Source of the DNA: an uncultured Clostridia bacterium
GTDB taxonomy: Bacteria > Bacillota > Clostridia > Christensenellales > Borkfalkiaceae
Direction: 5' to 3'
Assembly: GCA_944346885.1 (NCBI GenBank)
Contig: CALVMR010000014.1
Coordinates: 62,001-126,000 of the forward strand
Length of the DNA stretch: 64,000 nucleotides
The notes beneath the pieces are model-generated. The model searched no databases, was not told the origin of the DNA, and was given only the letters and a program-made list of their open reading frames with translations. Below are positions 1,579 to 64,000 of the stretch, one piece after another (positions within the stretch are counted from its first letter, which is position 1; each line of letters opens with the position of its first letter). The translations under genes and the position numbers were made by a program.

Positions 1579-2838
1579 TCAATCCACCAATATGGGGTCT
1601 TCCACGATCTTCCACGGCAGCCCGTTTTCGTTGAGCGCCTCCATGAACGGGTCGGGGTCGAACTCTTCGGGGGTATACACCCCCTTTTTGTTCCACTTGC
1701 CCGTAACAAGCATCATGGCGCCGATCATGGCGGGCACACCCGTCGTATACGAGATCGCCTGCGACTCCACTTCGCGGTAGCACTCCTGATGGTCGCATAC
1801 ATTGTAAATATACGCCGTTTTGCGCTTGCCGTCCTTCACCCCGGTAAAGATACAGCCGATGTTCGTTTTGCCGACGGTGCGCGGACCCAGCGAAGCGGGA
1901 TCGGGCAGCAGCGCCTTCAAAAACTGGATGGGCACGATTTCCTTCCCTTCAAAGTTTACGGGCGTTGTGGAGAGCATGCCGACGTTTTCCAAGCACTTCA
2001 TGTGCGTGAGGTAGCTCTGCCCGAAGGTCATAAAGAAGCGGATGCGCTTTACGCCTTTGATGTTTTTGGCGAGCGATTCGATCTCCTCGTGGTGCAAGAG
2101 GTACATATCCTTTTCCCCCACGCCGTCGAAAGAATAGGTGCGGTGAATGCTCATCGCGGGCACCTCGACCCACCTGCCGTTTTCCCAATACGAACCGGGG
2201 GCAGACACTTCGCGCAAATTGATCTCCGGGTTGAAGTTTGTGGCAAAGGGATAGCCGTGGTCGCCGCCGTTGCAATCCAAAATATCGATGGTTTCGATGG
2301 CGTCGAACAAGTGCTTTTGCGCATAAGCGCAAAACACCTGCGTCACGCCGGGGTCGAACCCCGAACCGAGCAGCGCCGTAAGCCCCGCCGCCTTATATTT
2401 TTCCCCGTACGCCCACTGCCAAGAATAATCGAAGTAGGCGGAAAACCCCTCTTCCTTGCAGCGCTTTTCGTATTTTGCGCGCCATACGGGGTCATCGGTG
2501 TTTTCCGGCTCGTAGTTCGCGGTATCCAAATAATCGACGCCGCAAGCGAGGCAGGCGTCCATAACGGCGAGATCTTGATACGGCAGCGCGATGTTCATCA
2601 CGAGATCGGGCTTCACCCGACGGATGAGCGCAATAACCTCTTCAGGGTCGTCCGCGTTCACCTGCGCCGTGGTGATCTTTGTCGCCGTTTTCCCTTCCAG
2701 CTTCGCTTTGAGCGCGTCGCACTTGGAAAGGGTGCGGCTGGCGATACACAATTCGGAAAACACATCGCTGTGCATGCAGCACTTGCGGATGGCAACGGAA
2801 GCAACGCCGCCGCAGCCGATGACCAATACGTTTGCCAT
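1579..2838 (-). CDS. Carboxy(nor)spermidine dehydrogenase (saccharopine-dehydrogenase family)
   Basis: The enzyme condenses aspartate semialdehyde with putrescine or diaminopropane and reduces the Schiff base with NAD(P)H to carboxy(nor)spermidine, the substrate of NspC. At 419 residues it is full length. The N-terminal Rossmann motif is GCGGVAS (residues 8-14), followed by the family segments LDTANYEPE and GSGFDPGVTQVF. The upstream sequence contains AGGAG and AGGAT about 10 bases before the ATG. Immediate coupling to nspC and membership of a polyamine operon separate it from lysine-pathway saccharopine dehydrogenases. The literature calls this gene casdh or CANSDH. Confidence 0.9.
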   Translation of the reverse strand: MANVLVIGCGGVASVAIRKCCMHSDVFSELCIASRTLSKCDALKAKLEGKTATKITTAQVNADDPEEVIALIRRVKPDLVMNIALPYQDLAVMDACLACGVDYLDTANYEPENTDDPVWRAKYEKRCKEEGFSAYFDYSWQWAYGEKYKAAGLTALLGSGFDPGVTQVFCAYAQKHLFDAIETIDILDCNGGDHGYPFATNFNPEINLREVSAPGSYWENGRWVEVPAMSIHRTYSFDGVGEKDMYLLHHEEIESLAKNIKGVKRIRFFMTFGQSYLTHMKCLENVGMLSTTPVNFEGKEIVPIQFLKALLPDPASLGPRTVGKTNIGCIFTGVKDGKRKTAYIYNVCDHQECYREVESQAISYTTGVPAMIGAMMLVTGKWNKKGVYTPEEFDPDPFMEALNENGLPWKIVEDPILVD

Positions 2839-11679: not shown

Positions 11680-11790
11680 TAAAAAAACCTGCGCAGCCGC
11701 ATACGTTTGCAGTTGCCCAGGTGGCCGGCGGTGCCGCTTTCCGCTCCCCCGCAGTTCCCTGCTTATCCACCAGTTGCGAAAAGCCCTCTG
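11680..11790 (-). promoter_or_regulatory. ZTP (pfl motif) riboswitch with terminator
   Basis: Minus-strand blocks in the ZTP consensus order are ACTGGTGG, then GGGGGAGCG, then CCACCTGGGCAACTG. They are followed by a hairpin ending in CAGG and a T7 run (about 11682-11709), so the switch acts on transcription of pflB. ZTP signals 10-formyl-THF shortage, and Pfl makes the formate needed to refill that pool. The family was originally named after pfl genes. Confidence 0.87.
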
Positions 11791-29517: not shown

Positions 29518-29617
29518 TCTTGCAACGGACGCTCCTCGGCACCGCAGGGAAACACCCTTTCGTTTGCGAACAACGTCCCGTTTCGCAACACTTAACGCGC
29601 CTCGGATACTCTGCATT
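29518..29617 (-). promoter_or_regulatory. Tetrahydrofolate riboswitch
   Basis: Minus-strand blocks match the THF-I class in order: GAGTA, GCGTTAAGTGT, GGGACGTTG, ACGAAAGG, GCGGTGCC and AGCGTCC. The P2 arms are CCGAGGC and GCCGAGG, which pair with a tandem G-A in the centre. The downstream leader offers alternative pairings with the ribosome-binding site region. THF excess should reduce folate uptake. Confidence 0.87.
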
Positions 29618-61189: not shown

Positions 61190-61264
61190 GCGGGAGTCGC
61201 CTAATGGTATGGCGTCAGCTTCCCAAGCTGATTCCCGCGGGTTCGATTCCCGTCTCCCGCTCCA
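61190..61264 (+). tRNA. tRNA-Gly (anticodon CCC)
   Basis: The acceptor arms are GCGGGAG and CTCCCGC. The anticodon stem TCAGC/GCTGA encloses the loop TTCCCAA, the T arm is CGGGTTCGATTCCCG, and CCA is encoded. It reads GGG codons. It stands alone with its own promoter and terminator. Confidence 0.95.
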
Positions 61265-61322: not shown

Positions 61323-61351
61323 TTGACTTTTCCCGAAAAATAGCGTATACT
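61323..61351 (+). promoter_or_regulatory. Promoter of small RNA 1
   Basis: TTGACT (61323-61328) is followed after 17 bases by TATACT (61346-61351). Confidence 0.88.
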
Positions 61352-61357
61352 ATAAGT

Positions 61358-61489
61358 ACCCGAAAGGGTTTTCTCGGCATACGGATGGGTGTAGGCGGCG
61401 CACTCCTTGCAAGTTCCGTATGTACGCTGTGGTTGCGAGCCCGGCAACCGTGGTACGTGCGGGCGGAGCGATCCGTCCGCGCATTTTTT
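61358..61489 (+). ncRNA. Candidate small RNA 1 (about 130 bases)
   Basis: A near-consensus promoter stands immediately upstream and a 9-bp GC-rich terminator with T6 ends it. Inside are ACCC/GGGT, an eight-pair stem CATACGGA/TCCGTATG enclosing a smaller hairpin, and GGTTGC/GCAACC flanked by GTAC/GTAC. No open frame with a ribosome-binding site is present. Its start (GAAAGGGTTTTCTCGGC) resembles that of RNAs 2 and 3, but the rest differs. I cannot match it to a known family such as 6S, SRP or tmRNA. Confidence 0.7.
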
Positions 61490-61500
61490 ATTGAAGCCGC

Positions 61501-61529
61501 TTGACTTCCGTTGCGGAAAATGGTATCAT
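61501..61529 (+). promoter_or_regulatory. Promoter of small RNA 2
   Basis: TTGACT (61501-61506) is followed after 17 bases by TATCAT (61524-61529). Confidence 0.85.
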
Positions 61530-61535
61530 TTCATT

Positions 61536-61637
61536 TGAAAGCGGTTGGCTCGGCGTTCATGCCTCGGAGCTCCACGAAAGGAGACTTTTGTCTGTGGCTG
61601 CTTTCTTTTTTTGCCCCGTTTTTCTGACGGGGCTTTT
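61536..61637 (+). ncRNA. Candidate small RNA 2 (about 100 bases), paralogue of RNA 3
   Basis: The outer stem GAAAGC/GCTTTC ends in a T7 run. Inside are GGCTC/GAGCT with GGC/GCC, then CCAC/GTGG carrying AGAC-TTTT-GTCT above a bulge on the 5' side. A second terminator (GCCCCGT/ACGGGGC, TTTT) follows. RNA 3 has the same plan with paired changes in the stems. Confidence 0.75.
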
Positions 61638-61671
61638 GCATACCCGACAAAAAGACGCCATACAAAACCGC

Positions 61672-61700
61672 TTGACTGCATGTGTAAGATATGCTATACT
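61672..61700 (+). promoter_or_regulatory. Promoter of small RNA 3
   Basis: TTGACT (61672-61677) is followed after 17 bases by TATACT (61695-61700). Confidence 0.88.
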
Positions 61701-61706
61701 CATCAT

Positions 61707-61825
61707 ATAGAAAGTGTTTGGCTCGGCGGCAGCTTTTTGCTTGCAGCCTTGTAGCCCCCACGCAATGAGGCTTTTCGCTCGTGGCACTTTCTTTTTTTTG
61801 TCCCGTTTTTCCGACGGGGCTTTTT
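61707..61825 (+). ncRNA. Candidate small RNA 3 (about 120 bases), paralogue of RNA 2
   Basis: The outer stem GAAAGTG/CACTTTC is followed by T8. Inner stems are GGCT/AGCC with a longer insert hairpin, and CCAC/GTGG carrying GAG/CTC around a TTTT loop. The second terminator (GTCCCGT/ACGGGGC, T5) is nearly the same as in RNA 2. Conserved single-strand blocks are TTGGCTCGGCG and CCACG. Confidence 0.75.
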
Positions 61826-61992: not shown

Positions 61993-64000
61993 TCAAGCGT
62001 CGATGGAAGTAAGGTCGCTGTAACGGTTTTTATAGAAGGTCACGCTCTGTTCTTCCAGCAGATCGACCAACTCATTCTGCTTATCCTCTGTGTAAGAAGA
62101 GACAACGGAGGACTTCATGGCACGGTAGAAATAATAGGAAAACGTGCCGTCCTCGTTGCGCTGCGCATACAGGAACCCGTCGTTGGTATCGTCGTCGTCA
62201 TCGGAGTAGTACACCGCGCCGCCCTCATAGGTAAAGGTCACATAGATGAGATGCCAGCCGTAATCGGTCGCCACCACGCAGTACGAACCTCTTCCGTAAT
62301 TTCCGCTTTCATCGGTGATCAGCTTCTGCGCGGCATACTCAAACTCCGGCACGTAGCTGGTCGCTTCCTGAATGGTATCGATGGAATAACCGTAATAGCT
62401 GTTCAGCCCCGCCGTATCCGTGGTGTAGGCAAACATGAGCTCGTTCACCGCCGAAAGCGCCTTGTAAGAAACGTTGCTCTTGACCAGATAATCCGCCGCG
62501 GATACCTCTTTCACGCCCGCAACACTGCCTTCGTAATAGATGGCAAAGGAATAATCTTTATCGGCGAGCAGCGAGGCGATCGCCGTTTCGTCCGAATCAT
62601 ATGCAGCGGCTTTGCTGCCGCTTACCGCCGCGCCCGACACTTTTCCGACATAGGCGTTAAATTCCGCGATAAACGCATCCACGTCCAGTTCGGCGGGCGT
62701 AAGATCGTACGTTTTCGTCTCCTCGTCGTAGCCGTTCACGGTGCCGTTGTACGGGTACAGCCCCGCGTAACGCGCAATGCCCGTGGCAGACTTGGTAAGG
62801 CTGTCTTCAAAGAAGAGATAATCGCTGTTCGCGTCCGTCTTATAATAATCCAGCGCGCTTTCACTCGCGTCGAAGCTGTAATCTTCGCTGCCGTTGAACC
62901 AGCTGCCGCGCTGGTCGGTCGCAAGAATGTGAGAATACAGGCTCTTGCGGTTGGCATAATACGCCGCCGTATCCGTGCCATAGCGCGATTTTATTTCGGC
63001 AAGGCGCATCTCCTGGCTGTCGTTAAAGGGCAGCAGAATGTTGTAGACGAACCCGTACACTTTCTCCGCGGGAGAATAGACCACAAAGGAAGTATCCGAA
63101 ACGCTATCCATCGTGCTCGTAAATTCGCTTGCCGACGTGACCTGCTGGGATGCAACGAGGTCGCTGTACGCCCGTTCCAAAGCCGCCTGCTCGATCGCAT
63201 CGGACATGGTGAGGCTGATCGTGGAAGAGAATTTGGCGATGACCAGCTGTTCCAGCTGCGCTTTCAGCTCGGTGTTATAATAGGCGAGCTGAACGGGGTC
63301 GGAGACGGATTCCTCCTCCTCGACCAAATTGCTCTCGCGTAGATATGTGATAAAGCGGGCGTAGGCAAGGCGGCGCGTTGCGCGGCGAGACCCTTCCAAC
63401 GCCTCGTATTCGCCGCAGTCTGCCTCCTCGTTCAGCCCCGTGTAGATCGCGTAATCGGCGGGATAATAGTACGCCGCCAGCGTGTTCATGCCCGAAGGCG
63501 TAGCGCGCGTCTCTTCGGACGTTTCCGTCTCTTCTTCGCTGATGATCTGCTCTTCGTACGAATCGATGGCGGAATTGATGCCGCTCTTTACGAGGTACTC
63601 CGCGTATGCGATCTCCGCATCGCTCAAAAGATAGGAATACCTGGCGATCGCCGCTTCGTCCGCGGTGAGCCCCTCCGCCCCCACTGCCGCCAAATAGTCG
63701 GCAACGCGCAGCGTTTTATCCATGCGATAGCCGTCGCTTTCGGCGATGTTTTCATAGCCCGCCGCGGCGGCGTCCTGCTCGAACTGCTCAACGTAGTCGC
63801 TGTCTACCGTAACGCTGCCCGCGCTCAGATAGTAGAGCGTGGCGAATTGGGATACGAGTTTGCGGTCGGCAAGCCCGGTCAAAAGCAGCTCGAAGGTCTC
63901 CGCATAGGTGTACCCGGAAGAGATGTAATTGTACCCGTAACTGAGGAAATAGGTCACCAGATCCCGCTTATAGATCTCGTCTGTGGAAACGATCTCGCCC
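61993..64000 (-). CDS. Secreted foldase/surface protein, C-terminal part (start outside window)
   Basis: The frame is open to the window edge, giving at least 669 residues, rich in Asp/Glu/Ser/Tyr/Ala and mainly helical with TRP/SurA-like character. Near the C terminus the segment GRGSYCVVATDYGWHLIYVT resembles the end of a parvulin (PpiC-type) prolyl isomerase domain, where GWH is typical. The composition is close to that of the large acidic protein at 49885-53832. A role in folding exported proteins is plausible but the catalytic core is weakly conserved. Confidence 0.6.
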   Translation of the reverse strand, partial: GEIVSTDEIYKRDLVTYFLSYGYNYISSGYTYAETFELLLTGLADRKLVSQFATLYYLSAGSVTVDSDYVEQFEQDAAAAGYENIAESDGYRMDKTLRVADYLAAVGAEGLTADEAAIARYSYLLSDAEIAYAEYLVKSGINSAIDSYEEQIISEEETETSEETRATPSGMNTLAAYYYPADYAIYTGLNEEADCGEYEALEGSRRATRRLAYARFITYLRESNLVEEEESVSDPVQLAYYNTELKAQLEQLVIAKFSSTISLTMSDAIEQAALERAYSDLVASQQVTSASEFTSTMDSVSDTSFVVYSPAEKVYGFVYNILLPFNDSQEMRLAEIKSRYGTDTAAYYANRKSLYSHILATDQRGSWFNGSEDYSFDASESALDYYKTDANSDYLFFEDSLTKSATGIARYAGLYPYNGTVNGYDEETKTYDLTPAELDVDAFIAEFNAYVGKVSGAAVSGSKAAAYDSDETAIASLLADKDYSFAIYYEGSVAGVKEVSAADYLVKSNVSYKALSAVNELMFAYTTDTAGLNSYYGYSIDTIQEATSYVPEFEYAAQKLITDESGNYGRGSYCVVATDYGWHLIYVTFTYEGGAVYYSDDDDDTNDGFLYAQRNEDGTFSYYFYRAMKSSVVSSYTEDKQNELVDLLEEQSVTFYKNRYSDLTSIDA

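What the first reader, a model, noticed from the sequence alone, without database searches (positions are those of the whole stretch)
61323..61825. Three consecutive promoter-small RNA-terminator cassettes beside tRNA-Gly, two of them structural paralogues
Seen: three TTGACT promoters, each with a 17-base spacer to a good -10, each followed by a structured region of 100-130 bases without a gene and a terminator. RNAs 2 and 3 align over their whole length. Their stems change together: GAAAGC/GCTTTC against GAAAGTG/CACTTTC, AGAC/GTCT against GAG/CTC, and a G-T pair against G-C in the inner stem. Single-stranded TTGGCTCGGCG and CCACG stay fixed. Such compensatory change indicates a selected RNA fold. 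RNA 1 shares only the 5' block. Inference: a multi-copy regulatory or structural RNA family.
Basis: partly seen in the sequence, partly recalled or inferred. Interest (0 to 1): 0.82.

Follow-up and report, generated by a model that had tools for sequence, protein, structure and literature searches.

The report
Orphan RNA partners of filamentous-phage proteins
Two of the three small RNA genes beside this tRNA are stray copies of a folded RNA that filamentous bacterial viruses carry next to a small, very basic protein; the pair travels as a unit and resembles a toxin with an RNA antidote, and no catalogue searched here lists either half.

Summary
The observation largely holds. Three promoter-RNA-terminator cassettes follow tRNA-Gly, and RNAs 2 and 3 share a three-way-junction fold. 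Among 21 distinct homologues, 17 of 24 pairs show changes on both sides (0 of 500 shuffles); wobbles are G-U (24) rather than A-C (3), so the transcript strand folds. TTGGCTCGGCG and CCACG are conserved but largely paired. RNA 1 is a separate family. Rfam has none of them.

The family is patchy (18 of 251 family genomes) and tied to inovirus (filamentous phage) prophages, where it lies convergent to a small basic protein ("KRK"). All 8 genomes with the original KRK family carry the RNA beside it. With a broader profile, 26 of 27 intact KRK-like genes have a promoter-RNA-U-tract just past the stop codon, against about 0.6% of other ORF ends. RNA families follow protein subfamilies (Mantel r 0.82). 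In one genome with two near-identical inoviruses, protein and RNA were swapped together.

At least 15 loci, including window RNAs 2 and 3, carry the RNA without the protein. Close relatives lack the cassettes at this site. Best reading: orphan RNA halves of an inovirus protein-RNA module, probably RNA-antitoxin-like. Toxicity, binding and expression are untested.

The parts
61190..61264 (+). tRNA-Gly (CCC), conserved neighbour in the genus
   Evidence: ARAGORN, synteny in the genus
61323..61351 (+). promoter of RNA 1, TTGACT-17-TATACT
61356..61489 (+). RNA 1 cassette with its terminator (hairpin 61457-61482, then T6); a separate RNA family, homologue in the G136 inovirus
61501..61529 (+). promoter of RNA 2, TTGACT-17-TATCAT
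   Evidence: promoter conserved in homologues
61537..61612 (+). RNA 2: three-way junction; P1 61537-61544/61598-61605 running into a T7 tract, P2 61547-61550/61568-61571, P3 61572-61575/61594-61597; orphan copy of the G136/G530 type
   Evidence: start inferred from the promoter
61613..61637 (+). second terminator of RNA 2; in phages the counterpart overlaps the 3' end of the convergent KRK gene
61672..61700 (+). promoter of RNA 3, TTGACT-17-TATACT
61710..61799 (+). RNA 3: three-way junction; P1 61710-61717/61784-61791 running into a T8 tract, P2 61720-61723/61753-61756, P3 61758-61761/61781-61784; orphan copy of the G095/G572 type
   Evidence: start inferred from the promoter
61800..61825 (+). 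second terminator of RNA 3

Best explanation
RNAs 2 and 3 are orphan copies of a 75-95-nt three-way-junction RNA that is one half of a two-part module carried by filamentous (inovirus) prophages of this bacterial family. The other half is a small, very basic protein ('KRK') encoded convergently, whose stop codon abuts the RNA's terminator. Shown here: the RNA fold, its conserved near-consensus promoter, the near-obligate pairing of protein with RNA, their exchange as a unit, and RNA-only copies. Inferred: the RNA is made constitutively in excess, folds into a closed junction and binds the cognate basic protein in trans to hold it in check, as an RNA antitoxin or inhibitory cofactor. RNA-only copies in host chromosomes and other elements would then act as antidotes or immunity RNAs against incoming phages that carry the pair. 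RNA 1 is an additional cassette, of unknown partner, from the same phage region. Confidence in the module reading alone is about 0.85; the stated figure covers the antitoxin-like mechanism too.
For: Covariation and transcript-strand wobbles. Conserved promoters. All 8 genomes with family-A KRK have the RNA beside it; 26 of 27 intact KRK-like genes have a convergent promoter-RNA-U-tract past the stop, about 0.6% background. RNA and protein families correspond (Mantel r 0.82, 0 of 2000). Protein and RNA swapped together between two near-identical co-resident inoviruses, and shared between two phages with unalignable Zots. At least 15 RNA-only loci; nine orphan-bearing genomes have no KRK-like protein by the wide profile. 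Cassettes absent at this site in close relatives. Precedents: RCd22/AbiF (PMC12373285); antitoxin-like RNA in phage PhiTE (PMC3475682).
Against: No toxicity, binding or expression data. KRK matches no known toxin or any other family. Neighbouring genes are co-inherited, so correspondence alone does not prove interaction. One KRK copy without its basic tail has no RNA beside it (G166). The convergent layout with separate promoters differs from known RNA-antitoxin operons. Some orphan promoters are weaker and one (G234) is not recognisable.
Confidence: 0.5

Rival explanations
1. Phage immunity or copy-control RNA: a constitutive prophage transcript, opposite to the phage structural genes, that represses incoming or co-resident inoviruses by antisense pairing or by binding a replication protein. 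RNA-only copies give the host superinfection immunity; KRK is a neighbour rather than the target.
For: Transcribed opposite to the phage genes, and in G572 and G164 lies just upstream of Rep. Co-resident relatives carry different RNAs in the same slot (G095), and G240 has a solo RNA of one type and a phage RNA of another.
Against: Rep is not next to the RNA in G205 and G155. The tight pairing and co-swapping with KRK is unexplained. Conserved internal loops and paired conserved blocks do not look like an antisense seed.
Confidence: 0.2
2. RNA as an activating or guiding cofactor: RNA and KRK form a ribonucleoprotein whose function needs both, for example in defence or phage regulation.
For: Same pairing and co-swap evidence.
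Against: Many RNA-only copies keep promoter and fold without the protein, which a cofactor alone would not explain.
Confidence: 0.15
3. Host regulatory small RNA family acting by base pairing on mRNAs; phages picked it up.
For: Own promoter and terminator, several copies in one array.
Against: Patchy (18 of 251 genomes), at unrelated chromosomal sites, absent from the syntenic site in close relatives; coupled to a phage protein.
Confidence: 0.08
4. Single-stranded DNA signal: a replication or packaging hairpin of the phage genome rather than an RNA gene.
For: Lies in the intergenic region of ssDNA phages, where Ff phages keep such hairpins; the promoter orientation would suit minus-strand priming (established knowledge of Ff).
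Against: G-U to A-C bias of 24 to 3 on the transcript strand; double-stranded promoter and terminator are conserved; related inoviruses lack it or swap it.
Confidence: 0.04

Closest known systems
AbiF/RCd22 protein-RNA system (type III-like), C. difficile prophage phi027 (PMC12373285)
   Same: Prophage-borne pair of a protein and a structured RNA of about 100 nt from a SigA-type promoter; RNA acts in cis and in trans by direct binding
   Different: RCd22 lies upstream on the same transcript and carries two copies of the abiF motif (RF03085); here the RNA is convergent, with its own promoter, a single junction, and an unrelated protein; no Rfam match
Type III toxin-antitoxin systems: ToxIN, AbiQ, CptIN, TenpIN (PMC5086642)
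   Same: Small protein with an RNA partner on mobile elements; antitoxin-like RNA without toxin known in phage PhiTE (PMC3475682)
   Different: No tandem repeats, no shared promoter, opposite strand, no ToxN relative
Inovirus toxin-antitoxin pairs catalogued by Roux et al. 2019 (PMC6813254)
   Same: Same virus group; accessory pairs shuffled among inoviruses
   Different: All pairs reported there are predicted type II, one type IV; no RNA partner appears in the passages read
Prophage-encoded small RNAs such as DicF and svsR (PMC5069750, PMC12803456; abstracts only)
   Same: Small RNA genes carried by prophages, svsR limiting phage infection
   Different: No coupled convergent protein is described in the abstracts; no sequence relation tested

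Membership tests
Type III toxin-antitoxin system | Antitoxin RNA made of tandem repeats | tested here: not met
   Single junction per RNA in all families examined
Type III toxin-antitoxin system | RNA upstream of toxin gene on one transcript, separated by a terminator | tested here: not met
   RNA is on the opposite strand with its own promoter in 26 of 27 loci
Type III toxin-antitoxin system | Toxin of the ToxN/AbiQ/CptN/TenpN family | tested here: not met
   No match in Pfam, NCBIfam, PADLOC or PDB sequences; fold not tested
Type III toxin-antitoxin system | RNA binds and neutralises a toxic protein | not testable with these tools
   Needs an experiment
AbiF-associated RNA (RF03085) | abiF RNA motif | tested here: not met
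   Rfam scans of the window and 20 homologous loci give no such match
Any described Rfam family | Match at or near the gathering score | tested here: not met
Inovirus origin of the RNA family | Zot-type ATPase, rolling-circle Rep and integration genes beside the RNA | tested here: met
   Zot PF05707 and Rep PF23343 in G144; Rep_1 PF01446 and integrase PF00589 in G205; relatives by tblastn. Not for the window's own copies, which have no phage gene nearby

The most novel reading that the evidence does not exclude
A widespread, unrecognised class of protein-RNA modules in inoviruses: several dissimilar small basic proteins each have their own convergently transcribed junction RNA, exchanged as cognate pairs, and bacterial chromosomes and rival elements accumulate arrays of the RNA halves as antidote or immunity banks.
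Probability: 0.4. Interest if true: 0.88.

Novelty: new variant of a known kind. Interest (0 to 1): 0.72.

Why it matters
Inoviruses are widespread and many of their genes have no known function; the inovirus toxin-antitoxin pairs catalogued so far are protein-based. A protein paired with a convergent structured RNA, swapped as a unit and leaving RNA-only relics in host chromosomes, would be a layout not seen in type III systems. It would explain part of the unannotated inovirus gene pool and give small, testable protein-RNA pairs whose specificity can be read from natural variation. It also warns that small-RNA arrays beside tRNA genes may be remnants of phage modules rather than host regulators.

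Tried and rejected
Known RNA family: Rfam at permissive thresholds gave only chance hits. Vertically inherited host gene: rejected on patchy, scattered distribution and the empty site. RNA gene as the phage attachment site: in G136, G151, G240 contig 1, G572 and G530 the RNA lies inside the phage, and integrases sit beside tRNA genes; no second copy of the tRNA-Gly 3' end was found in the window. Promoter hairpin in ssDNA: inverted repeats around the -35 are seen in only a few loci. Counter-transcribed control of Rep as a general rule: Rep is not next to the RNA in G205 and G155. R3 cassette in named phage or plasmid records, and KRK in named phages: no match. KRK, Zot and Rep in IMG/VR: none confirmed. 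Loose DNA pattern in IMG/VR: no member among the 80 loci held. Exact 5' motif in GTDB genomes: 51 hits, close to chance; the three clostridial ones inspected were coding sequence or unrelated. KRK-like proteins in 128 genomes of the class: none, which shows little.

Full report
WHAT IS THERE. The window carries tRNA-Gly (CCC) at 61190-61264 and its terminator, then three promoter-RNA-terminator cassettes up to 61825, then a convergent gene at 61993-63957. The three promoters are TTGACT with 17-nt spacers, the only promoter-like hits in 2.5 kb. Nothing in the interval matches Rfam.

FAMILY AND FOLD. A DNA search of 151 genomes of the same family found relatives of R2 and R3. A covariance model from R3 and five relatives found the RNA in 18 of 251 family genomes at E below 1e-4, in two genomes of other families of the order, and a refined model found it in four further genomes of one genus. 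The refined model scores 26 loci strongly plus two weak relatives. The fold is a three-way junction: P1 closes the RNA and runs directly into a U-tract; P2 is GGCU/AGCC with internal loops and usually a terminal hairpin; P3 is CCAC/GUGG with a purine-rich 5' bulge. On 21 distinct sequences, 92% of cells pair and 17 of 24 pairs have changes on both sides; no shuffle of 500 reaches this, and slid versions collapse. The alignment was fitted to the model and the sequences are related, so these controls are indicative. Wobbles are 24 G-U against 3 A-C, so the transcript strand is the folded one. A promoter TTGAC-17-TAnnnT is present at nearly every locus, usually with an A-tract upstream. Phage copies score 10-12 of 12 and orphans 9-12; one orphan (G234) shows none, and the G142 copy is cut by its contig end.

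WHERE THE RELATIVES LIE. In G095, G129, G136, G151, G155, G205, G240 (contig 1), G572 and G530 the RNA is convergent with a basic protein of about 140-155 residues (KRK) inside inovirus-type prophages. Pfam confirms Zot (PF05707) and a G2P-type Rep (PF23343) in G144, and Rep_1 (PF01446) and a tyrosine integrase (PF00589) in G205; the other assignments rest on similarity to these. Integrases sit beside tRNA genes in several phages. At other loci, the window included, no phage gene was found nearby. The cassettes R1-R2 have a counterpart in the G136 inovirus, where an R1-like cassette directly precedes an R2-like RNA.

THE MODULE. All 8 of 251 genomes that encode KRK family A have the RNA beside it (in G142 the protein is broken). 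A profile widened with the proteins found at the same place in G144 and in the second inovirus of G095 detects KRK-like proteins in 28 of 251 genomes. Of 18 such loci examined, 17 have a promoter of 9-12 matches on the opposite strand 95-124 nt past the stop, reading into a short RNA that ends in a U-tract by the gene's end. With nine family-A phages this makes 26 of 27 intact genes. The same test on 2365 ORF ends gave 38 positives, 20 of them KRK by profile and several more KRK-like or otherwise linked to such RNAs by eye, leaving roughly 0.6% as background. RNA sequence families follow the protein subfamilies (Mantel r 0.82, 0 of 2000 permutations; r 0.59 among distant pairs), and 22 of 26 RNAs fold with a closing stem against 30% of shuffles. 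Adjacent genes are co-inherited, so two swap cases carry more weight. In G095 two inoviruses have Zot 97% identical, 94% identity over the adjoining 303 bp and a shared RNA promoter (92% over 49 bp), yet protein and RNA body are both replaced. Between G530 and G136 KRK is 86% identical with the same RNA type, while their Zots do not align. Many of the further KRK-like loci also lie by inovirus genes.

ORPHANS. At least 15 loci have the RNA without KRK beside it: R2 and R3 here, G240 contig 12, G557, G080, G009, G185, G170, G192, G203, G215, G529, G234, G520 and G499. The nine orphan-bearing genomes of the 251-genome sample other than G240 (G000, G009, G080, G185, G170, G192, G203, G215, G234) have no KRK-like protein by the wide profile. 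Some orphans keep a few codons of a KRK tail. In the genus, the order phosphoglycerate-mutase-like gene, tRNA-Gly, downstream gene is largely conserved, and the tRNA-to-gene gap is 106 bp in G231 and 260 bp in G176, without cassettes, against 729 bp here. The array was therefore probably gained in this lineage, most likely from an inovirus.

MECHANISM. Shown: a folded transcript-strand RNA, a conserved promoter, near-obligate pairing of protein with RNA, exchange as a unit, and RNA-only copies. Inferred: the RNA binds KRK and holds it in check, and orphan RNAs protect their carriers. This follows the logic of protein-RNA toxin-antitoxin systems: RCd22 neutralises AbiF by direct binding (PMC12373285), and phage PhiTE escapes ToxIN with an antitoxin-like RNA (PMC3475682). 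Defining features of type III systems (tandem repeats, RNA upstream on one transcript, ToxN family; PMC5086642) were tested and not met, so it is not filed as type III. KRK has no convincing relative in Pfam, NCBIfam, PADLOC, PHROGs or PDB sequences. One KRK copy without RNA (G166, basic tail missing) is a counterexample or a broken copy. Immunity or copy control, and an activating cofactor role, remain open.

LIMITS. There are no expression, toxicity or binding data. Many genomes are draft assemblies in many contigs. Transcription starts are inferred from promoters. E-values of the short-calibrated models are rough.

Noticed in passing
L339 (G134), minus strand from about 718; L332 (G530) 4108 onward; L320 (G557) 1748 onward: A second small-protein family (ends ..RHKFFVGKFTKK) has its own convergent RNA (GAGCGTAGSC..GCCAAGCGCAAA); in G557 only the RNA and a protein tail remain beside a family-A orphan RNA.
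   Followed up: partly
L331 and L071 (G095 contigs 3 and 4): Two near-identical inoviruses in one genome differ by a swapped block holding the basic protein and the RNA, with junctions near the protein's start and at the RNA promoter.
   Followed up: yes
L110 (G164) 2093-2260 (-): An element with Rep and a tyrosine integrase carries two tandem RNAs of families A and B without any KRK gene beside them.
   Followed up: partly
RNA families C and D (G056, G048, G074, G180, G229, G245): A hairpin with a UUAAGU-like hexaloop recurs across otherwise dissimilar RNAs and might be a shared recognition element.
   Followed up: no
L342 (G166) 1501-1810: A KRK copy matching that of G056 but lacking the basic tail, with no recognisable RNA cassette behind it; the only exception to the pairing.
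   Followed up: partly
L071 about 310-370 and the promoter of the G240 contig 1 RNA in L112: Inverted repeats flank or include the -35 element in a few loci; possible operator, not conserved.
   Followed up: no
window 29521-29615 (-) and 11708-11787 (-): THF riboswitch and ZMP/ZTP riboswitch matches above gathering score.
   Followed up: no
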